Positions 34,865 through 62,745 of a stretch of 64,000 nt of DNA are shown one piece after another (within the stretch, counting starts at the first letter, position 1; each line of letters starts with the position of its first letter). The position numbers were made by a program, and so were the translations under genes. Source of the stretch: Bermanella marisrubri (lineage in GTDB: Bacteria > Pseudomonadota > Gammaproteobacteria > Pseudomonadales > Oceanobacteraceae). Under the pieces are notes generated by a model that saw nothing but the letters and a program-made list of their open reading frames with translations, ran no database searches and was not told the DNA's origin. The stretch is from the NCBI RefSeq assembly GCF_012295615.1, contig NZ_CP051183.1:2879001-2943000 (forward strand). Reading direction: 5' to 3'.

Positions 34865-35222
34865 GGGGACGATTTTGGATTCGACGCCGATGATGAAGCT
34901 TGAGGTGCATGTGGAGAGGGTATGACGATCTCCTAAATAAACGTTATACATATAAATAGTCGCAAACGACGAAAACTACGCACTAGCGGCATAATAGCCC
35001 GCTAACCTCTGATTCTGGATGCCTGTGGACAGATGACGAGGGCACGCAACACAGGCTCGCGATGGAGGCTTGTCTAAGGCTGAAGCGTTAAATAAGTATT
35101 AGGCTCGCCCTAAACGCCCTGTCTCTCGGGCCGTGATGGGTTAATCTAGTAGAGTGACTAAACATGTAGAACCGATAGTGGAGTGTTGGCGGACGCGGGT
35201 TCGAACCCCGCCGTCTCCACCA
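34865..35222 (+). ncRNA. ssrA: transfer-messenger RNA (tmRNA)
   Basis: The RNA of about 358 bases begins GGGGACGATTTTGGATTCGA and ends CGTCTCCACCA; GGGGACG and CGTCTCC form the tRNA-like acceptor stem with an encoded CCA. A T-arm (GCGGGTTCGAACCCCGC) precedes the 3' end. The tag frame starts at GCA 34962 and reads ANDENYALAA, stop TAA at 34992-34994, identical to the E. coli tag. With SmpB it releases stalled ribosomes and tags the peptides for proteolysis. The 3' end is a frequent integration site for islands, but no integrase is seen here. Confidence 0.98.
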
Positions 35223-50850: not shown

Positions 50851-53127
50851 TCATATTAAGTGGCTGGGCTGAATTCTGTGCATATAGGCGACTGCAGCAG
50901 AACGACTATCCAGTGACAGCTTGCGATAGATATTCTTCAAATGCCACTTTATGGTGGTCGCTGCTACCGCCATATCGTCAGCTATTTCTTGATTGCTCAG
51001 CCCTTGGGCAAGTAGCATTAAAACCTCTTTTTCCTTATTCGTTAATTCGTTATATCGCGCAGTTATATCGTCGGCATCCGTGGCATACCGTGGAAATAGG
51101 ATATTACGATAAGTGGACAAGTATTGTTTGGACGGTTGTAGTTCGCCCATGGATATCAAATTCGAAAGAATAGGAATAATCAAAGGCGCTTCGTCAAAAA
51201 GAGTACGGTTGAAAAGTAGCCAACCATAAAACTGTACCGCCTGCTTCAAAAGTATCTTACTTCTCGCTCTTTTACCTAAATACCAGTGAGCGACGATAAT
51301 CTGTGCCTCTGCTACCAAAGCTCGCACATGGTAATCGTGCTTCAAGAGCTCATCCCTTAATGGTTGCAATAGATCAATAACGTCTTGATAGCAGGATTCA
51401 TACAGCAACTGCATTGCCCAAGTCTGGGATAGGTAATCTCTAACATCAAGAATCAGGCTATTCTGGTCAATCTCAAGTGAGTCAATATTAAATTTTTCAT
51501 TCAAGTATTGAATGGACTTAAGATCATTTTTCGCTACAGCCTGTCTCATTCTTTCAGCTACGAGCTTTCCCTGATAACGGGGGTAATTTCCCATGGACAA
51601 AAATCGCTGTAAACGCACCAAGTATTCGAAACTTTTTTCTACATTCCCAGTTAAATCAAGAATACGTGCATAATATAAGTAAACGTGAATGATAACTTCT
51701 GTTGAGCACGCATTGTTAATATGCGGCATTAGCTTTTCACAAATAGATTCTGCGCCTTTGAGATCATTTTTTTCATAATACATAATGATCATACCCGTCG
51801 CATAATTCTGCCATGACGGATCTTTAGTATTTTCTTCCTTGCTATTAAAAGCCATCAACAACTGTTGCACAGCTTGAGCAGTATATCCCCGATATTTGTC
51901 ACAGGCGATCAATAGCATTTCCGTTAAACTTGCTAAATAAGTCTGTTGACGCTGATTCATGTAGAGTAAAGCATCTCGAGCTTTTCGAGCAGTCTCATCC
52001 AGTTTACCTTGATAGAAAGATTGATAAGCAGAAACAACTAATGCAACGCAGTGAATAACGCTATTTTTCAATTTCATATTTTCAAGGGAAGCCAATGGTT
52101 CGACTCTCTCCTCATCATCAACAGTAAAAAGCGCCAATGTATTACTTAATATATTGATCACTTCCTTATGGTCGTTTTCGGTAGAAACATCTTGCATTTG
52201 TTCGATAATATATCGAGCTTGATGAAAACGTCGCGTAAAAATCAACGCTACGACTAGAGGAATAATAATAGAGTGATAAGTGAGTAATTCTTCGTGATTG
52301 TCATAAAGAGTATCAATTAACATTTGAAAACTCCCATGACGCAACCAAAAATCGGCTGCCCTTTCCAGTATCGTTCTTCTCTCATCTATTGTTAGTGGAA
52401 AACGCTTATGCAAATACTGCCTCGCTTCAGGAACCCAGCGATAGTGACCTTGTTGAGCGATATTTGGCAACAGGTAGCGATACTCTTGCCAGACGTAGGA
52501 TAGCGATAAACCATTTGGTGCTAGATTCCGCCAAAGCGATTCAGATATTTCTGAAAAGCTTGCCAGCACACTCAGAGAGCTTAAATCTTTTTCCTGAAGC
52601 GTATCCCCCCACTGAGATTCTAAATACTGATCTAATTGGTTTTCTATATTTGCTTGATGCCAGTTCTTTTGCTGCATATAAAACATCAAAGGCCATATGC
52701 CTTCGGTTTTTTCAAGTAACTCTGGTTCCTGCAATAATCGTATTTCAACGGTATCAGGTTGAATCAAGGAGATATTGGGCATGCGTCGGCAGGCTATGTA
52801 GATATGGTCATCACAACTCAACTTATCTACCAATGTAGAAAACAAAAATGTGAACTCTTTTTCACTTAAGTGATGAACATCATCTAGCAATACCGAAATA
52901 GATTGGCCAGTAGAAACTTGGCTTAATTCTCCTAATACTTTTTTCGTAAATTCATGGGGTTTTTTCTCTGTAATATCAACGGAAAGATGAACAGAAAACT
53001 CATTTCTCTGCTGAATTAGGTGGGCATGCTCATGTAAATAAGTGGTTTTACCAAAACCTGGACCAGCAACTAAAAGCGTTGTTTTTATGGGCTTTTTTTC
53101 GCATTTTAGCATCTCATTATCTACCAC
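50851..53127 (-). CDS. MalT-like (LAL) LuxR-family transcriptional regulator
   Basis: A 758-residue regulator. The N-terminus binds ATP (Walker A GPGFGKT, 22-28; Walker B-like VLLDDVHHL), the middle is helical, TPR-like, and the C-terminus is a LuxR HTH: LTNKEKEVLMLLAQGLSNQE then VAATTIKWHLKNIYRKL. MalT-type proteins activate when they bind an inducer. It is divergent from the alpha-dioxygenase-like gene, which it may control. The apparent start is GTG at 53125-53127; an ATG five codons later is an alternative. Confidence 0.9.
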   Translation of the reverse strand: MVDNEMLKCEKKPIKTTLLVAGPGFGKTTYLHEHAHLIQQRNEFSVHLSVDITEKKPHEFTKKVLGELSQVSTGQSISVLLDDVHHLSEKEFTFLFSTLVDKLSCDDHIYIACRRMPNISLIQPDTVEIRLLQEPELLEKTEGIWPLMFYMQQKNWHQANIENQLDQYLESQWGDTLQEKDLSSLSVLASFSEISESLWRNLAPNGLSLSYVWQEYRYLLPNIAQQGHYRWVPEARQYLHKRFPLTIDERRTILERAADFWLRHGSFQMLIDTLYDNHEELLTYHSIIIPLVVALIFTRRFHQARYIIEQMQDVSTENDHKEVINILSNTLALFTVDDEERVEPLASLENMKLKNSVIHCVALVVSAYQSFYQGKLDETARKARDALLYMNQRQQTYLASLTEMLLIACDKYRGYTAQAVQQLLMAFNSKEENTKDPSWQNYATGMIIMYYEKNDLKGAESICEKLMPHINNACSTEVIIHVYLYYARILDLTGNVEKSFEYLVRLQRFLSMGNYPRYQGKLVAERMRQAVAKNDLKSIQYLNEKFNIDSLEIDQNSLILDVRDYLSQTWAMQLLYESCYQDVIDLLQPLRDELLKHDYHVRALVAEAQIIVAHWYLGKRARSKILLKQAVQFYGWLLFNRTLFDEAPLIIPILSNLISMGELQPSKQYLSTYRNILFPRYATDADDITARYNELTNKEKEVLMLLAQGLSNQEIADDMAVAATTIKWHLKNIYRKLSLDSRSAAVAYMHRIQPSHLI

Positions 53128-53199
53128 TTTATTATTGTTTTACTCATGTGGAAGTATGAAATTTAACACACCCACTCCCCTTCTGCCGAGCAGTCTTAT

Positions 53200-53233
53200 C
53201 CCCTCCCTACGGGGGGGAGGCGAAGTTCTTTTT
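53200..53233 (+). promoter_or_regulatory. terminator-like hairpin in the leader of the alpha-dioxygenase-like gene
   Basis: CCTCCC (53202-53207) pairs with GGGAGG (53215-53220); a T-run follows at 53227-53235. It lies between the divergent regulator and the plus-strand gene and could attenuate the latter, provided the promoter is upstream of it. Confidence 0.4.
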
Positions 53234-53281
53234 TTCTACTAGTCTGCGTGCACCCACAACAACAATAAAAAGGAGGCATAT

Positions 53282-56044
53282 ATGTCGACATCAGTATGGG
53301 TGACTTGGCCCGCTATCGCTAAAGCCGGTGGCAGTATCGGAATCGTAATAGGATTGCTCACGCTAGGCTTGCAAAGGGAAGACCTAACTGAAAATAATCT
53401 CATTGCCACAGAGGACTTAAGCAAAGCCAATGCTGAAATTGTATGTGATGAGCGCAGTTTGACCGCACGTACCGAAGATGGCACCTGTAATATTCTTGAT
53501 AATCCAGCCGAGGGCTCTGTTAATCGGCGCTTTGGACGCAACGTCAAATTAGAGGCCGCCTATGGAGAAACCGAAAACGATACTCTACTAGAACCAAACC
53601 CCCGTGCCGTTTCCAATGAATTAATGGCAAGGGAAGAGTTTAAGCCCGCCACGAGCGTGAACTTTATAGCCGCCGCGTGGATTCAATTCATGGTTCACGA
53701 CTGGATTGATCATGGGGATGGGGATGCCAACAACCCGATTCTTGTGGAGCGCCCCGCTGGAGATCCTAAGGGTCCTGGTACAATGAGTATTAAACGCACA
53801 ACGCCTGATAGCGACCGCACTGCAGAAGAGGACGCGACCCTACCGGCGACCTATCGCAATATAAACACCCACTGGTGGGATGGATCTCAATTATATGGTA
53901 GTGACAAAGCTACGAATGACTCTGTAAGAGCATTCGTTGACGGTAAACTAAAGGTTGAAGAAGACGGCACACTGCCAACGGATTATTGGAGTAATGTTCC
54001 GGTTACTGGCTTTAATAAAAACTGGTGGCTAGGTTTATCAATGCTGCACCAGCTTTTCACGTTAGAGCACAATGCTATCGCTGAAATGCTAAAGCAAAAA
54101 TACCCTGAACGTGATGATCAATGGCTTTACGATAAAGCTCGTCTGGCCAATGCCGCGCTGATGGCAAAAATTCACACTATCGAATGGACACCTGCCATTA
54201 TTGCTAATCCAGTAACTGAGAGAGCCATGCGCGCTAACTGGTATGGTCTAACAGATGAACGTGAAGGTCGAGACAAGGTACAAGAAATCTTAGACGGGTT
54301 ATCTGAAGGTATTACTAGCTCTCCATTATTAACCGCTCTTCTATCAAGTCGTCCTGATTTAATTGAAAAACTGGACGACCCGAATTTTATTGATTTTGCG
54401 ATTGGTGGCTTGGTAGGTACACGCGAACCCTACAACGGCGGAACCGATTATTCGTTAACCGAAGAGTTTACAGCTGTGTACCGTATGCACCCACTATTAC
54501 GTGATGATGTTGAAGTCTATGATATAGGCTCTGCAGAAGTAGCGCGTCGCATCCCTATGATGGAGACCCGTGACGGACACGCAGAGGATATCCTAGACGA
54601 AGAGGGTGGCGAACGACTTTGGTATTCTTTTGGTACAACGTACCCAGGTTCTCTAACACTACACAACTATCCTGAATTCCTGCGAAACCTTTCGATTCCG
54701 TTCTCTGAAGACATTGATCTAGCGACAATCGACATTCTACGAGATCGTGAACGTGGTGTGCCTCGTTATAATGAGTTTCGTCGTCAGATTGGTCTAAACC
54801 CCATCACCAAATTTGAAGACCTAACGAGCGATCCCAAAACGTTAGAAGCGCTTAAACGTTTATACGATAACGATATTGAAAAAATCGACGCCTTAGTTGG
54901 TCAACTAGCAGAGACTGTTCGCCCCGAAGGCTTTGCATTTGGTGAAACGGCGTTTCAAATCTTTATCCTAAATGCCTCTCGTCGTTTGATGACAGACCGC
55001 TTTTATACCTCTGATTACCGCGCAGAAGTATATACGCAAGAAGGGATTGATTGGGTAGAAAACAATGACATGAAAGACGTACTCGAGCGTCATTTCCCAG
55101 AGCTAAAAGTAAGCCTAACCGGTATTGAAAATGCCTTTAAACCTTGGGGCTTAAAGATTCCTGATAACTACCAAGAAATGGCAGCCTGTGACAAGCAAAC
55201 CCTGCTATGGCAAAACGGTGTAACTCAGACATTATACGAGCAAGGCGAACGTCCCGCACTGCAGCCGGTTGATATTGGTGGCTTAATCGATTCCATTCTG
55301 TGGAAAAAGGTGAATCGCAACGAAGATGTCGCGCCATTAGGTTATGAGAAACCTATTCACCCGTATGGCGCCATGGCAACAGTTGCATTTGAATCCAGCA
55401 ATAGCCATCCCTATACAGGGATATTTGAAGGCGCGGAGTGTGGTCTTGTTCGTCTCTCCGTCACAGGTGATCCCGATGACCGCGGTTTTGCGCCTGGATT
55501 AGCATGGAAAACCTTTATTGATGGCAAGCCTTCTAGCAATGTGTCTGCACTCTATACATTATCAGGCCAAGGGGATAACCATGATTTCTTTGCCAATGAG
55601 CTTTCGCAATATGTATCTGCTGAAGTCAATGATACGTTAGGCAGCACGGCGCTATTCTCTTTGGTGACCAGTAAACCTACTCGACTGATGACAGAGAACC
55701 TAGCGGAAACACAAGCAAATGGTGAAGTGGAAGCAACCCCAAAAGCACCAACACAAATATACTTTGTGCCCACGCAAGAAGTGCGACAACGCTTTGCTTC
55801 TAGTGCTCATGATTTCCGAGATGATCTCATCACCTTGCAATCGGGTACCGCACTATATGACGTCTACGCCACCGATAAACCTATTCGTACTAGTATCTTT
55901 GGTTGGATCAATCGTCGCTACGCGAGCGATCGTCGCAATAGTGCAATTAAAGTGGGAACCATGCGTCTAACATCCGAAATGACCACATCGGCATTTGGTG
56001 ATGGCGGCGTTTTCTTTAAACATCAACGCTATGAAGACCGATAG
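53282..56044 (+). CDS. fatty-acid alpha-dioxygenase-like haem protein fused to a catalase-like domain
   Basis: A 920-residue protein. Residues about 50-630 match plant-type alpha-dioxygenase: distal haem His139 in IQFMVHDWIDH, and YSLTEEFTAVYRMHPLL with the catalytic tyrosine (Tyr400) and proximal His403, the Tyr-x-x-His spacing of alpha-DOX and cyclooxygenases. This class oxidises fatty acids to 2-hydroperoxides. Plant enzymes end near this point; here about 290 residues follow, resembling a minimal catalase fold (IHPYGAMATVAFE, GLVRLSVTGDP, DRGFAPGLAWKTFIDG). A catalase-like partner could process the hydroperoxide, as allene-oxide synthases do; inference. AAGGAGG precedes the ATG. A weak hydrophobic stretch near 17-30 may be a membrane anchor. 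Confidence 0.82.
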   Translation: MSTSVWVTWPAIAKAGGSIGIVIGLLTLGLQREDLTENNLIATEDLSKANAEIVCDERSLTARTEDGTCNILDNPAEGSVNRRFGRNVKLEAAYGETENDTLLEPNPRAVSNELMAREEFKPATSVNFIAAAWIQFMVHDWIDHGDGDANNPILVERPAGDPKGPGTMSIKRTTPDSDRTAEEDATLPATYRNINTHWWDGSQLYGSDKATNDSVRAFVDGKLKVEEDGTLPTDYWSNVPVTGFNKNWWLGLSMLHQLFTLEHNAIAEMLKQKYPERDDQWLYDKARLANAALMAKIHTIEWTPAIIANPVTERAMRANWYGLTDEREGRDKVQEILDGLSEGITSSPLLTALLSSRPDLIEKLDDPNFIDFAIGGLVGTREPYNGGTDYSLTEEFTAVYRMHPLLRDDVEVYDIGSAEVARRIPMMETRDGHAEDILDEEGGERLWYSFGTTYPGSLTLHNYPEFLRNLSIPFSEDIDLATIDILRDRERGVPRYNEFRRQIGLNPITKFEDLTSDPKTLEALKRLYDNDIEKIDALVGQLAETVRPEGFAFGETAFQIFILNASRRLMTDRFYTSDYRAEVYTQEGIDWVENNDMKDVLERHFPELKVSLTGIENAFKPWGLKIPDNYQEMAACDKQTLLWQNGVTQTLYEQGERPALQPVDIGGLIDSILWKKVNRNEDVAPLGYEKPIHPYGAMATVAFESSNSHPYTGIFEGAECGLVRLSVTGDPDDRGFAPGLAWKTFIDGKPSSNVSALYTLSGQGDNHDFFANELSQYVSAEVNDTLGSTALFSLVTSKPTRLMTENLAETQANGEVEATPKAPTQIYFVPTQEVRQRFASSAHDFRDDLITLQSGTALYDVYATDKPIRTSIFGWINRRYASDRRNSAIKVGTMRLTSEMTTSAFGDGGVFFKHQRYEDR

Positions 56045-56074: not shown

Positions 56075-56106
56075 GCCCGCATCGCTTGCCGATTGCGGGC
56101 TTTTTT
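56075..56106 (+). terminator. terminator of the alpha-dioxygenase-like gene
   Basis: GCCCGCA/TGCGGGC stem and six T, 31 bases past the stop. It separates this gene from the phospholipase-like gene, so the latter has its own promoter. Confidence 0.9.
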
Positions 56107-56304
56107 ATACCTCTATGAAAAATTATATTAAACGGCTAAAAGATATGCTGCCTTGTTCTTTGATAATGAATGAGACATTAGCTCAATACATATTTATAAA
56201 TCACAAAAAATCACGTTTCAAATCTCACATTCAAAGTTGAACCCACCTATTCAAATACTTCTTTAACCAGATAACATCACAGTAAAGGACAAGTGCTTAG
56301 CATT

Positions 56305-56322: not shown

Positions 56323-56417
56323 TCATGTTTACTTCTATTTCCTGTCTGATAAAAAACCTAAAGCAACCTTGGTTGCACACAATAAATATAAAAAACTCAC
56401 CTCAACGAGAATTAAAT

Positions 56418-57668
56418 ATGTTCAAACGAACTTTTATTCGCCAAATCAGTGCTTTGGCGACACTTGGCTTTTTTAGTCTTCATGCATTGGCAATGAGCGC
56501 TACTCCCGATCCACAAGCTAGTGTTGACGGAGATGCCATCACGCAGTTTCAAAACAGCTGGGCTGGAAAGGCATTAGCCCACCAACGTAACATGGATGCC
56601 AATAAACCACTCGCCGAAAACAATATCATCGGCTCTCATAACTCCTATAATTCTCGCAAATACCGAAATGCCACGCGCTACCTTGATCCCCAACAAATCG
56701 TTTCTATCTATGATCAACTGCGATTAGGGGCACGTTTTATTGAACTGGACGCACACTGGACTGCGCATACCCATGGTTGGCCTTGGCAATGGGGAACAGA
56801 TCTTTTGCTTTGTCATTCAGGTATCGGTGTTGATGTAGGTGATTTGCATGTGGGCTGTAGTTTGACTGATCGCCGAGTTGAAGATGGGATTGCAGAAGTA
56901 GCTCGCTGGATTAACGAGAATCCGAAAGAAGTCATCATCCTCTATTTTGAAGATCACACAGACGGTCGCCATCAAGAACTTTTTAACGTGATAAACAAGC
57001 AACTGGGCGCAAACATTTACGCGAGCCAAGGGTGCAAAGCTATTCCCAACACACTGACCAAAAATCAAGTACTTGCAAGCGGCAAGCAAGTCATTGTTTG
57101 GAAAGACGGCGGTTGCTCCGGTAATCAAAATATGAGCAACATGGCTTTCACTAGCCTTGGAGATATTAATCGCATTTGGGAAGATAGAACCAGCATTGGG
57201 GCCATTGGCGCTTTCTTTACAAATGGATCGGTAAAGAAAATTGAATCAGAAGATGTCATTCAAGCATTTAAAAATGGTGGCAATATCGTCAACCTTGATG
57301 ATATGACTCATAGTGACGACCGCTTGTCTGCTGCGATTTGGTCATGGGATGTAAACGAACCGAATAACTGGGGCGGTAACCAAGACTGCGCGCTTCAATG
57401 GGAAAATGGCCGTTGGGATGATACAAGTTGCAGTAATCAACATTTCTTCGCTTGCCAGCATAACGAAACACAAGAGTGGAATATTTCTACTTATCAAGAT
57501 GCCTGGCAGGCCGGACAACAAGCTTGTTCATTATTAGGTAACTATCGCTTTTCTACTCCCAGCAATAGTCTCGAAAACGAAAAACTAAAAACAGCAAAAG
57601 GTGGTATTAGTCACGTGTGGTTGAACGCCAGTGATCGAACAGAAGAAGGCACTTGGATCACTCATTAA
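56418..57668 (+). CDS. secreted PI-PLC-X-type phosphodiesterase with C-type-lectin-like tail
   Basis: A 416-residue protein with a Sec signal (MFKRTFIRQISALATLGFFS). The catalytic X domain has both histidines: His74 in GSHNSYNSR and His133 in LLCHSGIG, with Glu109/Asp111 in IELDAHW. The family cleaves phosphatidylinositol or related phosphodiesters. From about residue 310 come lectin-like motifs: VNEPNNWGGNQDCAL, WDDTSC, FFACQ, then a second, partial lectin pattern (AWQAGQQACSLLG, SHVWLNASDRTEEGTW) that stops before its expected end. Truncation of the last module is possible. I start at ATG 56418 so that the signal peptide is N-terminal. Confidence 0.85.
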   Translation: MFKRTFIRQISALATLGFFSLHALAMSATPDPQASVDGDAITQFQNSWAGKALAHQRNMDANKPLAENNIIGSHNSYNSRKYRNATRYLDPQQIVSIYDQLRLGARFIELDAHWTAHTHGWPWQWGTDLLLCHSGIGVDVGDLHVGCSLTDRRVEDGIAEVARWINENPKEVIILYFEDHTDGRHQELFNVINKQLGANIYASQGCKAIPNTLTKNQVLASGKQVIVWKDGGCSGNQNMSNMAFTSLGDINRIWEDRTSIGAIGAFFTNGSVKKIESEDVIQAFKNGGNIVNLDDMTHSDDRLSAAIWSWDVNEPNNWGGNQDCALQWENGRWDDTSCSNQHFFACQHNETQEWNISTYQDAWQAGQQACSLLGNYRFSTPSNSLENEKLKTAKGGISHVWLNASDRTEEGTWITH

Positions 57669-57915: not shown

Positions 57916-59280
57916 TTAAACTCCTTGTGGTTCAGCTAGTTTGTTTGGAACATCACTTTCAATCGACGCTGGTGTATTCGCCTCAGGATAGGGTTTAGCT
58001 AAAATCTCTACTTCATCAATACCAATTTCTTCCGCAGACTCAGGTACGCGCAATGCATTGGCCTTTTTCAGTGCATAAGATATTCCGTAACCTGGTAAGA
58101 AACCTAAAGCGATCATAACCAATGCAGAAATTAATTGTCCGGTGAACGTAATGTCTGGAGCACCATTCACGTTTGGTGTGCCGTGGGCAAAAACACCAAC
58201 CAAGACAACAGCGACCGCACCAGTGAAACCATGAACAGCTACTGCACCAACTGCATCATCAATTTGCAAACGTTCCAATAGTTTGGCGAATTGCACCGCA
58301 GCAACACCCATACAAGTAGCGATTATAAACGCAAGTGATGGGCTATATAGATCGAGACCGGCGGCTACAGAAATAATACCTACAAGACCACCAGACATGG
58401 TCCAAAATGGATCGCGAGTTGCGATATAGCAGCCAATAATGCCGCCAGCAAATCCCATTAGTGTATTAAATGCGAATGCAGACAAATTAGTTGGAGTGTT
58501 ATAGATAGTCGTCCAGCCAGTTTCGCCGCCGTTGAATATAATGCAGCCACCCAAGAAGCCAAAGAAACCAAAGATGATCATCATGAGACCAATCAAGGTC
58601 ATAGGTAATGAGTGAGGAGCTATAGTTTGCGCAACGCCATCAATAAACTTGCCTTTACGCGCACCTAAGTTAATCAACACACCTAGTGTAAAGAAACCCG
58701 CAATGGCATGAACAACACCCGAAGCACCTACATCGTGATAACCCAATTGCGTTAGCAACCAGCCATCAGGGTGCCATCCCCAAGCGCCTGCCAAAATCCA
58801 GATGGCACTACCTAAGCACACAGTGAGAATTAAAAACGCACTGACTCGAATCCGCTCAATAACCGCTCCGGATAATATTGAACCCGTAGTCGCACCAAAT
58901 AGAGCAAACGCCGCCCAAAAAATACCAGTACCCATGTCCTGTACATCAGGACCCATACTTTGCGACCAAGGCAAAGCAGCGGAAGCATCAATTGGAGTAA
59001 AACCGTGAGGGAAAGCGTTATAAATCCACCAGCCAAACAAGTAAAAAGTAGGAATGATAACAGCGAGTGCAAGAATATTTTTTATACCCGCAGCCAGTGC
59101 ATTTTTGCTTCTTGACGCCCCCATTTCGTAAGCAAGAAAGCCTGCGTGGATCATGACCATAATAGCAGTACACCACCAATAAAATACTTCCATATTCATG
59201 GCTTGGTGCATTTCGAAAGAGGCCTGCTGCGCCTCAACCATGGCTTGCAACGACTCAATCGTTGCCGTTTTTGTTTCCAT
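57916..59280 (-). CDS. amt: ammonium transporter (Amt family)
   Basis: A 454-residue protein with about 11 spans. The two pore histidines are in ASGVVHAIAGFF and AVHGFTGAVAVV. The cytoplasmic tail begins ALRVPESAEEIGIDEVE, which matches the GlnK-binding helix of AmtB proteins, and then runs on about 30 residues. It has an unusual N-terminal helix (TATIESLQAMVEAQQASFEM) before TM1. No glnK is linked. It lies after eutB-eutC, enzymes that release ammonia. A hairpin in the 5' region includes its ribosome site. Confidence 0.93.
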   Translation of the reverse strand: METKTATIESLQAMVEAQQASFEMHQAMNMEVFYWWCTAIMVMIHAGFLAYEMGASRSKNALAAGIKNILALAVIIPTFYLFGWWIYNAFPHGFTPIDASAALPWSQSMGPDVQDMGTGIFWAAFALFGATTGSILSGAVIERIRVSAFLILTVCLGSAIWILAGAWGWHPDGWLLTQLGYHDVGASGVVHAIAGFFTLGVLINLGARKGKFIDGVAQTIAPHSLPMTLIGLMMIIFGFFGFLGGCIIFNGGETGWTTIYNTPTNLSAFAFNTLMGFAGGIIGCYIATRDPFWTMSGGLVGIISVAAGLDLYSPSLAFIIATCMGVAAVQFAKLLERLQIDDAVGAVAVHGFTGAVAVVLVGVFAHGTPNVNGAPDITFTGQLISALVMIALGFLPGYGISYALKKANALRVPESAEEIGIDEVEILAKPYPEANTPASIESDVPNKLAEPQGV

Positions 59281-59323
59281 AAAGTGCTCCTTTTATGTAG
59301 CAATATTCAACATAAAGCACTTT
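59281..59323 (-). promoter_or_regulatory. hairpin enclosing the amt ribosome-binding site
   Basis: On the minus-strand RNA AAAGUGCU (59316-59323) pairs with AGCACUUU (59281-59288) and UUAUGU with ACAUAA inside it, 14 perfect base pairs. The core AAGG of the Shine-Dalgarno is a 4-base bulge and the AUG follows directly after the stem. No U-run follows, so translation rather than transcription would be controlled. Confidence 0.65.
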
Positions 59324-59426
59324 ATCAATACGCCAGTACTAGGGTTATCAAGAATTGGCAATGTTTTACGAGCGAATTAGAAGCTCAAAGAAAATCCGCG
59401 CCCACTAAAGGTGCAGACACTGAATA

Positions 59427-60242
59427 CTAGCCTTCAGTAAGAAAATTACCCAAGGATGCTTGTGTATTACTAAGACTGGCGATATCCGCATTTTCTTTTA
59501 AGTTCACACCAGAAAGCTGTAATCTTCGCGATTCTTGTAATAAGTACCAAGCTTTTTGCGAAGCAAGAGAATAATTCAACCCCTTTGGTCGAATATTAGA
59601 AATACAATTACGCATGGCATCGTTACACCCACGCTCAGCTGCCCAAGTCAGATAAAGCCCTAAACTATCCGGCGAACTCAAGCCAGGTCGTTCTCCTATT
59701 AAGACTACAATACACTTAGCGCCAATGGCTTCCGCAACATCATCACCTAACGCAACGCGGCCTTGCTCAGCTATAACAATAGGGGCGACCGACCAGTGAT
59801 GTGCAATTAATTTTGGCACTAAATGGTCGAGAAATAATGTCGTATTTTGCTCAACAGCAATCGCCGATAAGCCATCGCAAATCAGAAATGCCACATCATA
59901 AGGCTTCAATGATCTTTGAGTTTTCAGTCGTTTAATATCTTCAGATCTTAGCTGCCTGCCTAAATCAGGTCGTTGCAAATACTGAGCTCGATCTTGCGCT
60001 TCACTTTTAACACGAGTGACACCAAATGTATTCCAAGGCCTACTATCAATTTGCTCATAAAGCTTTTCAACATCAAACTCCTTGTGAACGGCATCTTGTG
60101 CTTTAGCATGTGACAATTGAAAACTCAGCCACTCATGTGTCGGCAAACTGGTGCCAGCACGCCCTAAACCAATTCTAGCATCGGTGAAACGCTGCAACTT
60201 TGACCATGGATTAGCAATAATTGTCGTTGTCATATCAGCCAA
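59427..60242 (-). CDS. eutC: ethanolamine ammonia-lyase small subunit
   Basis: A 271-residue EutC. Landmarks: RIGLGRAGTSLPTHEWLSFQ, DGLSAIAVEQN, VALGDDVAEAIGAK, VVLIGERPGLSSPDSLGLY and an NCISNIRPKGL stretch. It binds the adenosylcobalamin cofactor with EutB and splits ethanolamine to acetaldehyde and ammonia. Its start overlaps the eutB stop by eight bases. Confidence 0.96.
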   Translation of the reverse strand: MADMTTTIIANPWSKLQRFTDARIGLGRAGTSLPTHEWLSFQLSHAKAQDAVHKEFDVEKLYEQIDSRPWNTFGVTRVKSEAQDRAQYLQRPDLGRQLRSEDIKRLKTQRSLKPYDVAFLICDGLSAIAVEQNTTLFLDHLVPKLIAHHWSVAPIVIAEQGRVALGDDVAEAIGAKCIVVLIGERPGLSSPDSLGLYLTWAAERGCNDAMRNCISNIRPKGLNYSLASQKAWYLLQESRRLQLSGVNLKENADIASLSNTQASLGNFLTEG

Positions 60243-61623
60243 TCCTTTCTAGAGTCGTGGCAAAAGAGGCAGGCAAGGTTTTATTCAATAGCCCGCTTTC
60301 GTTGTTAGAAAAAATATCGCTGTCTTTGAGCCATTGATGAAATTCAGGAGCAGGGTTACGCTGTAAAAGCTGTCTAATATACAGGGCGTCATGAAAGGAG
60401 GTCGTCTGATAATTTAGCATAATGTCATCCGACCCCGGTATTCCCATAGCAAACGTAAGACCCGCGGTTGCTAACAACGTCAATAGATTATCCATATCAT
60501 TCTGATCAGCGTCGGCATGATTGGTATAGCAAATATCACAACCCATAGGTAAGCCTAGTAGCTTGCCACAAAAATGGTCCTCCAAGCCCGCGCGAGTAAT
60601 CTCTTTTCCGTTGTATAAATATTCTGGCCCGATAAAACCAACCACCGAATTCACGAGTAATGGACTAAATTTTCTTGCAACCGCATACGCTCGTGCTTCA
60701 CATGTTTGCTGATCAACATCGAAATGCGCATTGGCAGAAAGAGCACTTCCTTGGCCAGTTTCAAAATACATGAGGTTATTACCCACTGCGCCGCGATTCA
60801 GTGACAAACCTGCTTGATAGGCCTCATCTAAAATTGAAAGATCAATGCCAAAACTGCTGTTTGCTTTTTCAGTACCTGCGATGGATTGAAATATCAAGTC
60901 GACCGGCGCACCTTTTTCAATGGCTTGTAATGTGTTGGTCACATGAGTTAGTACGCAATGTTGAGTTGGAATGCCATAGTGCTGAATGACTTCTTCCATC
61001 ATGTTCAGCAAAGTGATGGTTTGTGCTACGTTATCTGTCGCAGGGTTAATACCGATAACGGCATCACCATTACCATATAGCAACCCATCTAGAATACTGG
61101 CGGCGATGCCTGTCATATCATCTGTCGGATGATTAGGTTGCAGTCGAGTTGAAAAGCAACCCGGCAAACCAATCGTGTTATTAAACGCGGTTTCAACGCG
61201 ACATTTACTAGCGACAAGAATTAAATCTTGATTACGCATAATCTTACATACAGCGGCAACCATCTCAGGTGTTAAGCCAGCCTGTATTGCGGCTAAATGC
61301 TCCGCCTGAATACCATCATCCAACAACCAATTACGCAATTCTCCCACGGTTAAGTGAGAAATAGTCGCAAAGCTTTTAGCATCATGTTCATCGAAAATTA
61401 ACCGAGTAACCTCATCTTTCTCATACGGGATGACTGCGTCTTGTAAAAATTGCTTAAGAGGCACATCCGATAAGCATAATTGCGCAACAGCGCGCTCTTC
61501 GGCAGAGCTCGCTGCTATTCCCGCTAAGAAATCACCAGACCTACTTGGAGTCGCTTTAGCCAATAATGTTTTTAAATCTTTAAACTTAAAAAGTTGTCCT
61601 GAAGCCTTGTGCTGATACGTCAT
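60235..61623 (-). CDS. eutB: ethanolamine ammonia-lyase large subunit
   Basis: A 462-residue EutB of normal length. Typical stretches: FKDLKTLLAKATPSRSGD, NTIGLPGCFSTRLQPNHP, GDAVIGINPATDNV, NSVVGFIGPEYLYNGKEI, and GCDICYTNHADADQNDMD near the C-terminus. It is the catalytic subunit that binds ethanolamine in its barrel and uses adenosylcobalamin radical chemistry. No eut shell or aldehyde/alcohol dehydrogenase gene is in view. The product ammonia may be taken up or retained by the Amt protein encoded downstream. Confidence 0.97.
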   Translation of the reverse strand: MTYQHKASGQLFKFKDLKTLLAKATPSRSGDFLAGIAASSAEERAVAQLCLSDVPLKQFLQDAVIPYEKDEVTRLIFDEHDAKSFATISHLTVGELRNWLLDDGIQAEHLAAIQAGLTPEMVAAVCKIMRNQDLILVASKCRVETAFNNTIGLPGCFSTRLQPNHPTDDMTGIAASILDGLLYGNGDAVIGINPATDNVAQTITLLNMMEEVIQHYGIPTQHCVLTHVTNTLQAIEKGAPVDLIFQSIAGTEKANSSFGIDLSILDEAYQAGLSLNRGAVGNNLMYFETGQGSALSANAHFDVDQQTCEARAYAVARKFSPLLVNSVVGFIGPEYLYNGKEITRAGLEDHFCGKLLGLPMGCDICYTNHADADQNDMDNLLTLLATAGLTFAMGIPGSDDIMLNYQTTSFHDALYIRQLLQRNPAPEFHQWLKDSDIFSNNESGLLNKTLPASFATTLERIG

Positions 61624-61697
61624 GGAAAAATATCCAAATCACTGGGAATAATTTTTGCAAAATATTTACTACAGAGTTTAAGTAGCCAAGCAATAAT

Positions 61698-61719
61698 CGA
61701 TAGCATATATGGCCTATCG
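61698..61719. promoter_or_regulatory. dyad in the eutB-eutR intergenic region
   Basis: CGATAG-N10-CTATCG, two turns apart centre to centre within the 157-base region between the divergent eutB and eutR-like genes; a candidate operator. Confidence 0.4.
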
Positions 61720-61779
61720 TGCTGAGCGTTATCAAATATTGGCAAGATCTTGACCATCAGCCTCGAGAAAAGCAATAAA

Positions 61780-62745
61780 ATGAATCAAAACCAACTTACT
61801 CATGCACACTCTCGGTGCGGAAAAATACGACATATCACAGCCCATGATGCCGATGAGCACGCCCACAATCTGACTAATTGGCAGCAAGAATATGATCAAG
61901 TCAGTCCTGGTGCATTTGAAGGTAGCATTAAAGAGTTACAGTTGAATGGCATTCAGGTATTCAAGGAATTCACCAGCCAATCCGTATTTCAGAAATGTAA
62001 CGTTTGGTCCGATTCTCTATGGATAGGTTTACCTGAAAGTAAGCCTGAGCAAAGCCGAATCAATGGCCACCACTTACAATCACATCAAGTAATGTGCAGG
62101 CCCGGTGATATAGATTTCAGTTTGATGACACCGAGTCAATTCAACATTTTCGGCATTGTTATCGATCAATCGCTGTTAAGTAATATTGAAGATAGTGATT
62201 ATTCCTCTGCTCAGCAGTTCTCTCTATCTGAATGCATCAGTTTAAAAGCCAAGACTTACAATAATCTCCATTATTTATTGCAGCGATTATTAATGCATCC
62301 CCATGACGGCATTCCAGAAAAGGTGTGCCATGATCTACTCCTGCTAGCGCTACACGACGTCTTGACCCCGGAGTCAGTCAATTGCTTACCACCAACGAGC
62401 CTTAAGCGACGCAATCAAATTGTAGATCTTACCTTGCATTATCTGAAACAGCATCATGATGAACCCGTCACCGTTACTGAGCTTTGCACACTCGCTTGCG
62501 TTAGCCGACGAACCTTACAATACAGTTTTGAATCCGTACTCGGAATCAGCCCCGCACATTTTTTACGCATTAGCCGACTCAATGGTGCGCGACGATCATT
62601 GCGGCAAGCAACAGAGCAAGATTGTATTGCGGACGTTGCTGCACAATGGGGCTTTTGGCATTTGAGCCAATTTGCTAAAGACTACAAACAACTTTTTGGT
62701 GAGCTTCCCTCAGAGACTAAGCACCTCTATTCAACGGTGAACTAA
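61780..62745 (+). CDS. EutR-like AraC-family activator
   Basis: A 321-residue AraC-type regulator. The N-terminal effector domain resembles EutR: NLTNWQQEYDQVSPGAFEG, IQVFKEFTSQS, DSLWIGLPES. The C-terminal double HTH has VTELCTLACVSRRTLQYSFE, GISPAHFLRISRLNGARR and AAQWGFWHLSQFAKDYKQLF. In enteric bacteria EutR senses ethanolamine with B12 and activates eut genes; here it is divergent from eutB. The ATG at 61780 is chosen; an in-frame TTG ten codons earlier is an alternative. Confidence 0.9.
   Translation: MNQNQLTHAHSRCGKIRHITAHDADEHAHNLTNWQQEYDQVSPGAFEGSIKELQLNGIQVFKEFTSQSVFQKCNVWSDSLWIGLPESKPEQSRINGHHLQSHQVMCRPGDIDFSLMTPSQFNIFGIVIDQSLLSNIEDSDYSSAQQFSLSECISLKAKTYNNLHYLLQRLLMHPHDGIPEKVCHDLLLLALHDVLTPESVNCLPPTSLKRRNQIVDLTLHYLKQHHDEPVTVTELCTLACVSRRTLQYSFESVLGISPAHFLRISRLNGARRSLRQATEQDCIADVAAQWGFWHLSQFAKDYKQLFGELPSETKHLYSTVN

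What the first reader, a model, noticed from the sequence alone, without database searches (positions are those of the whole stretch)
53282..56044. Fatty-acid alpha-dioxygenase-like domain fused to a catalase-like domain
The Tyr400-x-x-His403 and HDWIDH motifs are those of alpha-DOX/cyclooxygenases. About 290 C-terminal residues look like a minimal catalase fold. Catalase-like allene oxide synthase fused to lipoxygenase is known from corals; a bacterial alpha-DOX with such a partner would be a new oxylipin enzyme design.
Basis: partly seen in the sequence, partly recalled or inferred. Interest (0 to 1): 0.8.

Follow-up and report, generated by a model that had tools for sequence, protein, structure and literature searches.

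The report
Fatty-acid dioxygenase fused to catalase-fold domain
A marine bacterium makes one long protein that joins a plant-like fatty-acid-oxidising enzyme to a catalase-shaped domain lacking the part that normally grips the haem, a pairing kept in many related bacteria whose exact chemistry is still unknown.

Summary
The 920-aa ORF (53282-56044, +) is real and conserved. Residues ~19-623 are an alpha-dioxygenase (best PDB matches are plant enzymes 4kvj and 4hhr, E 7.6e-119 and 1e-110). His139, His298 and Tyr400-x-x-His403 are identical in 66 of 66 fused rows, own included.

Residues ~630-920 match no Pfam family, but profile comparison and predicted models point to the catalase fold; coral allene oxide synthase is the top PDB fold match for both models.

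The usual haem ligand does not. The chain ends before the helix that carries the proximal Tyr in catalase-like comparators: all 71 rows whose end is held (65 fused, 6 stand-alone) stop within nine residues of the last strand. His693, Arg724 and Ser726 of the pocket are kept, and so is His914 near the C-terminus (69 of 71), a possible substitute ligand.

Of 80 loci, 65 have the fusion in one frame, 2 in broken frames, 13 a dioxygenase alone. In Calothrix the parts are separate nearby genes beside GMC oxidoreductase and patatin genes, with a dioxygenase of another lineage. Best reading: the second domain handles the 2-hydroperoxy acid. That function is inferred.

The parts
53282..56044 (+). Fused gene, 920 aa: alpha-dioxygenase + catalase-fold domain
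   Evidence: same architecture in one frame in 65 of 80 loci
53336..55150 (+). Alpha-dioxygenase domain (about residues 19-623); H139, H144, H298, T303, Y400, H403, R567, R568, R573 identical in 66 of 66 rows
   Evidence: PF03098 E 5.5e-107; 4kvj_A E 7.6e-119; conservation
55169..56041 (+). Catalase-fold domain (about residues 630-920) without the proximal-Tyr helix; H693, R724, S726, K743, N753, G762, Q763, F770 identical in 66 of 66 fused rows; H914 in 63 of 65
   Evidence: models; Foldseek; profile test; conservation; chain end
50851..53127 (-). LuxR-family regulator (758 aa, C-terminal GerE; MalT-type by recall and length), divergent neighbour; homologues lie next to the fused gene in most loci that could be scored
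   Evidence: 40 same-strand and 7 divergent of 61 loci with enough upstream DNA
56075..56107 (+). Terminator-like hairpin with T run after the gene (scan reports 56084-56100; longer stem by eye), so a single-gene transcript is likely

Best explanation
The protein is a two-part fatty-acid alpha-oxidation enzyme whose second domain is a catalase fold that has lost the standard haem-iron ligand. The N-terminal domain should use haem and the Tyr400 radical to put O2 on the alpha carbon of a free fatty acid, giving a 2-hydroperoxy acid (inferred from family and conserved residues). The C-terminal domain is proposed to take that hydroperoxide and steer its fate, decarboxylation to the C(n-1) aldehyde or reduction to the 2-hydroxy acid, or at least to bind and shield it. 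It would do so without Tyr-ligated haem, most likely haem-free, using the pocket that keeps the catalase-type His, Arg and Ser. Shown: fusion, dioxygenase residues, conserved pocket residues, absence of the proximal-Tyr helix; the catalase fold by prediction. Inferred: substrate, product, haem status and the hand-over.
For: Dioxygenase. Fold. Missing proximal helix: RxxxY lies in the last 40% of 14 of 14 catalase-like comparators (13 of 14 with the stricter P-[LI]-G...RxxxY pattern; L140 only loosely), and the Tyr is 272-306 residues after the distal His in the 11 measured. The C-domain family ends about 228 residues after its His (53 of 71 rows exactly 228 by pattern) and all 71 rows end within nine residues of the F912 column. 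RxxxY occurs in 4 of 71 rows, three of them in the last eight residues. Pocket still constrained: R724 and S726 identical in 65 of 65 fused and 6 of 6 stand-alone rows, H693 in 65 of 65 and 5 of 6. Functional link: in Calothrix sp. PCC 6303 a separate dioxygenase gene lies about 1.5 kb upstream of a C-domain gene (41% identity), with a small ORF and a transposase ORF between, followed by GMC oxidoreductase and patatin genes. Its DOX groups with acidobacterial stand-alone enzymes (99/100, 100/100), so the pairing is seen with two DOX lineages. The joint fits the split genes: the Calothrix DOX ends at FKPWK where the fusion has FKPWG.
Against: No activity, haem content or product is known. 13 of 80 loci have the dioxygenase without the C-domain, and in 12 of those 13 genomes (mostly metagenome-assembled, possibly incomplete) no C-domain relative was found, so the partner is not required for an alpha-DOX. 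Of four genomes with a stand-alone C-domain, two (G841, G015) have no PF03098 gene and two (G526, G658) have one elsewhere; the two P. veronii plasmid records have none. So the domain can serve something else. Invariant pocket residues could be structural. His914 is kept in 69 of 71 rows, which leaves haem by another ligand open. The profile match covers only about 70-90 columns around the distal-His half of the barrel, and the model of the window's own domain has no Foldseek hit below E 0.001; TM-scores are low (TMq 0.33-0.40). A transposase ORF lies between the Calothrix genes and its DOX is a long branch whose place the tree tool calls unsure. CalDOX and LepDOX are reported active as recombinant enzymes (PMC8720084, abstract and passages; that they lack such a partner domain I take as likely but did not check).
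Confidence: 0.5

Rival explanations
1. The C-domain does bind haem, by a substitute axial ligand (best candidate His914 at the chain end, opposite distal His693), and works as a hydroperoxide-lyase-like haem enzyme on the 2-hydroperoxy acid, so the protein has two haems.
For: His914 is His in 63 of 65 fused and 6 of 6 stand-alone rows, H693 in 65 of 65 and 5 of 6, and the propionate-type Arg724 in 71 of 71. H914 sits just after the last strand, about where the chain would lead to the proximal helix in catalases. Such conservation is odd for a pocket that lost its cofactor.
Against: No structure or spectrum. H914 is Gln in L039 and L064. Y827 and Y859 are identical in the fused set but vary in stand-alone rows. 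H914 could be structural.
Confidence: 0.25
2. The C-domain is only structural or regulatory (dimerisation, membrane or lipid docking, folding aid) and never touches the hydroperoxide.
For: No canonical active site; 13 of 80 loci do without it; other alpha-DOX enzymes are active without a known partner (PMC8720084); stand-alone C-domain proteins occur in two genomes without a PF03098 gene.
Against: Conserved residues include a likely pocket set (H, R, S, K, N, G); the pairing recurs with a second DOX lineage in Calothrix beside lipid enzymes.
Confidence: 0.2
3. A true coral-type allene oxide synthase or catalase domain.
For: Coral AOS is the top fold match for both models.
Against: No proximal Tyr or following Arg: the chain ends first in the 71 rows held to their end. 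An alpha-position hydroperoxide has no neighbouring double bond for allene oxide chemistry (established chemistry).
Confidence: 0.03
4. Chance fusion, assembly error or decaying gene.
For: Two of 80 loci (L061, L063) have broken frames, and G423 keeps only a short remnant.
Confidence: 0.01

Closest known systems
Plant and cyanobacterial alpha-dioxygenases (4kvj, 4hhr; CalDOX/LepDOX, PMC8720084)
   Same: Similarity over residues 19-623, catalytic Tyr, haem His residues
   Different: Plant chains end where this DOX domain ends. The published tree trimmed C-terminal extensions before building, and the words catalase and fusion do not occur in that paper.
Coral AOS-LOX and HPL-LOX fusions (3dy5, 1u5u; PMC5617202 passages)
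   Same: A lipid-hydroperoxide maker fused to a catalase-fold domain; top fold match
   Different: There a lipoxygenase, catalase domain N-terminal and with proximal Y353 and R360; here alpha-DOX, catalase fold C-terminal and without that helix
Nostoc punctiforme 10S-dioxygenase with a separate catalase-related hydroperoxide lyase (Brash 2014; not held, seen only as cited in PMC13049297 and PMC9410191)
   Same: Bacterial cyclooxygenase relative working with a catalase-related partner
   Different: Separate genes, C10 not alpha oxygenation; whether that partner has the proximal Tyr was not checked
Fungal DOX-P450 fusions, especially Aspergillus 10R-DOX-1 (PMC13049297 passage)
   Same: A DOX of the same superfamily fused to a partner that lacks its usual haem ligand
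   Different: Partner there lacks the heme-thiolate ligand of a P450; here a catalase fold lacks the Tyr
Small catalase-related proteins (3e4w, M. avium paratuberculosis)
   Same: Fold match, similar size
   Different: 14 of 14 bacterial catalase-like comparators keep an RxxxY near the C-terminus; 3e4w itself was not inspected for it

Membership tests
Alpha-dioxygenase (peroxidase-cyclooxygenase superfamily, PF03098) | PF03098 domain with plant alpha-DOX as nearest solved relatives | tested here: met
Alpha-dioxygenase (peroxidase-cyclooxygenase superfamily, PF03098) | Catalytic Tyr, proximal and distal His | tested here: met
   Y400, H403, H139 in 66 of 66 rows, aligned to the plant motifs
Alpha-dioxygenase (peroxidase-cyclooxygenase superfamily, PF03098) | 2-hydroperoxide formation from fatty acid | not testable with these tools
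   needs enzyme assay
Catalase / catalase-related haem proteins | Catalase beta-barrel fold | tested here: met
   predicted models only; profile test
Catalase / catalase-related haem proteins | PF00199 match above cut-off | tested here: not met
   no PF00199 match at E 10 for the domain, two stand-alone relatives and two more
Catalase / catalase-related haem proteins | Distal His and propionate Arg | tested here: met
   H693 and R724 align to the comparators' His and Arg; 66 of 66; L147 alone lacks the His
Catalase / catalase-related haem proteins | Proximal Tyr ligand in RxxxY helix | tested here: not met
   comparators have it, the family ends before it
Catalase / catalase-related haem proteins | Bound haem | not testable with these tools
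   needs spectra or structure
Coral-type allene oxide synthase | Distal Thr/Asn (T66, N137 of cAOS) | tested here: inconclusive
   residue 692 is Ile/Met/Leu in 66 of 66; the Asn equivalent is ambiguous in alignment
Coral-type allene oxide synthase | Allene oxide or short aldehyde product | not testable with these tools
   needs assay

The most novel reading that the evidence does not exclude
A widespread bacterial bifunctional alpha-oxidation enzyme whose second active site is a catalase fold that processes fatty-acid hydroperoxides either with no haem at all or with a haem held by a C-terminal His (His914) in place of the catalase Tyr. The same domain has been paired with two separate alpha-dioxygenase lineages.
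Probability: 0.32. Interest if true: 0.82.

Novelty: new variant of a known kind. Interest (0 to 1): 0.58.

Why it matters
Fusions of a lipid-hydroperoxide maker with a haem partner are known from corals (lipoxygenase + catalase fold) and fungi (DOX + P450). This is a bacterial counterpart in marine, oil- and soil-dwelling Gammaproteobacteria, with a catalase fold stripped of its usual iron ligand. It offers a test of whether such a fold can still direct peroxide chemistry, and a possible enzyme for aldehyde or 2-hydroxy-acid production. It also points to a domain family, with some members that look exported, that had no Pfam match in the five proteins tested.

Tried and rejected
Sequence searches alone did not show the catalase link: PDB phmmer/hmmsearch gave only chance-like hits (lumazine synthase E 0.0017, 0.042 with the broader profile). 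A first profile comparison with shallow alignments was not significant (P 0.11 and 0.51); only the deeper set gave P about 9e-4 and beat all shuffles. Block shuffles of 12 columns reached 31.4, close to the real 33.8, so the sequence evidence alone is moderate.

Other folds: ranks 2-6 are VgrS, ureidoglycolate dehydrogenase and a decarboxylase at E 0.08-0.19. Lipocalins and acetoacetate decarboxylase appear only at E 0.2 or worse.

I first mapped Asn753 to the catalase distal Asn, then dropped the claim because the aligner placed the region differently. I therefore raised the substitute-ligand rival from 0.20 to 0.25 and the novel case from 0.30 to 0.32, and lowered the main reading from 0.55 to 0.50.

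The PI-PLC-like gene downstream had no hit in the 80 other loci then held. Viral contigs: 60 pattern hits, none a relative. A C-domain tree did not settle whether Calothrix lies inside or outside the fused set. A first DOX tree had a long-branch row, L141, and gave the fused group 83/100; without it the group has 100/99. Both trees used 17 of the 66 fused rows.

Recalled, from no call: catalase residue numbers other than those in PMC5617202, the family name y4iL-like, that chanoclavine synthase is catalase-like, MalT-type regulators, what PI-PLC and GMC enzymes do.

Literature searched for the fusion: 7 papers hold all terms; passages of PMC13049297 and PMC11719350 read; 0; 67 papers with at least 3 of 4 terms, 20 listed; passages of PMC8720084, PMC9305512, PMC13049297 read; 78 papers with at least 4 of 5 terms, 15 listed; passages of PMC5617202, PMC11719350, PMC13049297, PMC9410191 read; 427 papers with at least 2 of 3 terms, 15 listed, none of those 15 holding alpha-dioxygenase; 26 papers with at least 2 of 4 terms, 10 listed; 0; 9 papers, 8 listed; passages of PMC4420034 and PMC5041501 read; 12 papers, 10 listed. 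What I saw does not describe this fusion. I read no paper whole, and most subscription papers are not held.
Full report
Observation. The ORF at 53282-56044 (+) is 920 codons with an in-frame stop and a ribosome-binding-site-like AAGGAGG before its ATG; a terminator-like hairpin with a T run follows. A search of its 3.55-Mb genome with the whole protein finds only this gene at E 10, and no PF00199 catalase at E 1.

N-terminal domain. PF03098 covers 63-609 with E 5.5e-107. The best solved relatives are plant alpha-dioxygenases, 4kvj E 7.6e-119 and 4hhr 1e-110, aligned in two stretches between residues 19 and 623; a lactoperoxidase follows at 8.1e-25. H139, H144, H298, T299, T303, Y400, R401, H403, R567, R568 and R573 are identical in 66 of 66 fused rows, own included. 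This fits alpha-DOX membership by sequence; activity is untested.

Family and distribution. A scan of genome contigs found 126 relatives, of which the best 80 were kept. 65 of 80 span both domains in one frame at 60-80% identity (one, L031, cut by its contig end), 2 (L061, L063) have both domains in broken frames, and 13 have a dioxygenase without the C-domain, 3 from Gammaproteobacteria and the rest titled or placed as Acidobacteriota. Because the cut keeps the best 80 for a fused query, these ratios are not a census. In drawn genomes, own included each time, the C-domain profile hits 5 of 398 in the phylum, 19 of 293 in the order (two of these, G423 and G560, are a short remnant and a weak chance-like match) and 3 of 369 in the class (own fusion plus two stand-alone proteins). 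Hosts of the fusion include Thalassolituus, Oleispira, Bermanella, Alcanivorax, Marinobacter, Pseudomonas, Moraxellaceae and Teredinibacter.

C-terminal domain. Pfam does not match it and NCBIfam gives one sub-cut-off match; two stand-alone relatives are also unmatched in Pfam. AlphaFold2 on 45 aligned rows (of 66; near-duplicates at 92% and the cut row left out) gave pLDDT 81.1, pTM 0.83, with barrel strands after a helical N-terminal part. Foldseek against 350,542 PDB chains ranked coral AOS-LOX 3dy5 first, but only at E 0.02 and probability 0.51, with unrelated folds next at E 0.08-0.19. A second model, of stand-alone relative L146 on 49 rows, gave pLDDT 82.4, pTM 0.86. Its first matches are 3dy5 and 1u5u (coral allene oxide synthase), 3e4w and 3e4y (a mycobacterial catalase-related protein), E 1.5e-4 to 3.4e-3, then 9jdb (chanoclavine synthase, catalase-like by recall) at 0.05. 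TM-scores are low (0.33-0.40), so detailed superposition should not be read from them.

Profile evidence. 71 C-domain rows (65 fused, 6 stand-alone) against 14 catalase-like proteins found with PF00199 or with a profile of such hits (some lie below the PF00199 cut-off) gave hhalign score 34.1, P 9.5e-4 over 91 columns. With gap-rich columns removed the score is 33.8 over 69 columns, never reached in 150 column shuffles (mean 14.8, max 27.4) or 150 block shuffles (mean 18.0, max 31.4). Shallower alignments had failed (P 0.11, 0.51). The aligned part is the distal-His half of the barrel only. It puts His693 on the catalase distal His and Arg724/Ser726 on the R-x-S strand.

The missing ligand. 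RxxxY lies in the last 40% of 14 of 14 comparators (13 of 14 with a stricter motif), and the Tyr is 272-306 residues after the distal His in the 11 measured. The C-domain family ends about 228 residues after its His (53 of 71 exactly). RxxxY occurs in 4 of 71 rows, three of them in the last eight residues. All 71 rows end within nine residues of the F912 column. Stand-alone relatives from Calothrix, P. veronii plasmids and genomes G526, G658, G841 and G015 end the same way, so this is a family trait and not a truncation in the window. PMC5617202 (passages) gives the coral set: R64, R102, R360, distal H67, T66, N137 and proximal Y353. Here H67 and R102 have conserved equivalents, the R64 position is Lys in 65 of 66, and Y353/R360 have none. 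The N137 equivalent is unresolved. A possible substitute is His914, His in 63 of 65 fused and 6 of 6 stand-alone rows.

Partnership. In Calothrix sp. PCC 6303 (plasmid NC_019727) a separate alpha-DOX, a C-domain homologue (41% identity), a GMC oxidoreductase and a patatin-like lipase lie on one strand, with a small ORF and a transposase ORF between the first two. The Calothrix DOX groups with acidobacterial enzymes (99/100; 100/100 without the long-branch row), while the fused ones form one group (83/100 and 100/99). Calothrix itself is a long branch, so this is good but not final evidence for a pairing with two DOX lineages. Against a strict tie: 12 of 13 genomes with a DOX alone lack a detectable C-domain. 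Of four genomes with a stand-alone C-domain, two lack PF03098 and two have it elsewhere; the two P. veronii plasmid records lack it, their chromosomes were not searched.

Regulation. A LuxR-family protein of about 760-930 aa with an ATPase-like N-terminus lies beside the fused gene: same strand just upstream in 40 of 61 loci, divergent in 7, elsewhere in the locus in 4, none in 10. The 10 include the window's own locus, whose short fetched flank hides the divergent regulator seen in the window at 50851-53127. Identity to the window's regulator is mostly 24-30%.

Mechanism. Shown: fusion, conserved alpha-DOX residues, absence of the usual proximal ligand, retained pocket residues, genetic pairing; the catalase fold by prediction. 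Inferred: alpha-oxygenation of free fatty acids to 2-hydroperoxy acids, which decarboxylate to the C(n-1) aldehyde and also give the 2-hydroxy acid (PMC8720084, passage), with the second domain steering that fate. The GMC oxidoreductase and patatin neighbours in Calothrix fit a path from lipid to free acid to oxidised product, but that is a guess from annotation.

Comparison. Coral AOS-LOX, the Nostoc 10S-DOX with a separate catalase-related lyase, and fungal DOX-P450 fusions are the nearest designs. PMC13049297 (passages) notes that Aspergillus 10R-DOX-1 is fused to a partner without its heme-thiolate ligand, the closest parallel to a ligandless partner. My searches found no paper describing the present fusion (listed under Tried and rejected).

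Verdict. It is a new variant of a known kind, with moderate to high interest because the second domain's chemistry is open and easy to test.

Noticed in passing
window 56325-57668 +: 447-aa protein with PI-PLC-X (E 2.9e-7) and C-type lectin (E 2.4e-5) matches, downstream of the fused gene; no hit in the 80 other loci then held.
   Followed up: partly
L051 8760-10478 and L058 8840-10894: In many Pseudomonas loci the fused gene lies near type II secretion genes (GspE- and GspD-type matches; two gene clusters of 18 loci each, mostly Pseudomonas). Whether this is more than inherited gene order was not tested.
   Followed up: partly
L088/L089 7881-8861, L109 and L113 1015-2292, L146 1354-2316: Stand-alone C-domain relatives begin with signal-peptide or lipoprotein-like sequences (by eye; no predictor run), so this domain may also work outside the cytoplasm.
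   Followed up: no
L147 (G015) 1114-2229: A distant member lacks the distal His (QANG where others have H-x-x-G), yet has the same C-terminal end and the His914 equivalent.
   Followed up: partly
window 53195-53240 +: GC-rich inverted repeat followed by a T run between the divergent regulator and the fused gene, in the likely leader of the fused gene (by eye); not listed by the terminator scan.
   Followed up: no
window 34865-35222 +: tmRNA gene, tag ANDENYALAA.
   Followed up: no
window 57916-62745: Ammonium transporter, EutC, EutB and an AraC/EutR-like regulator: a small ethanolamine-use cluster.
   Followed up: no
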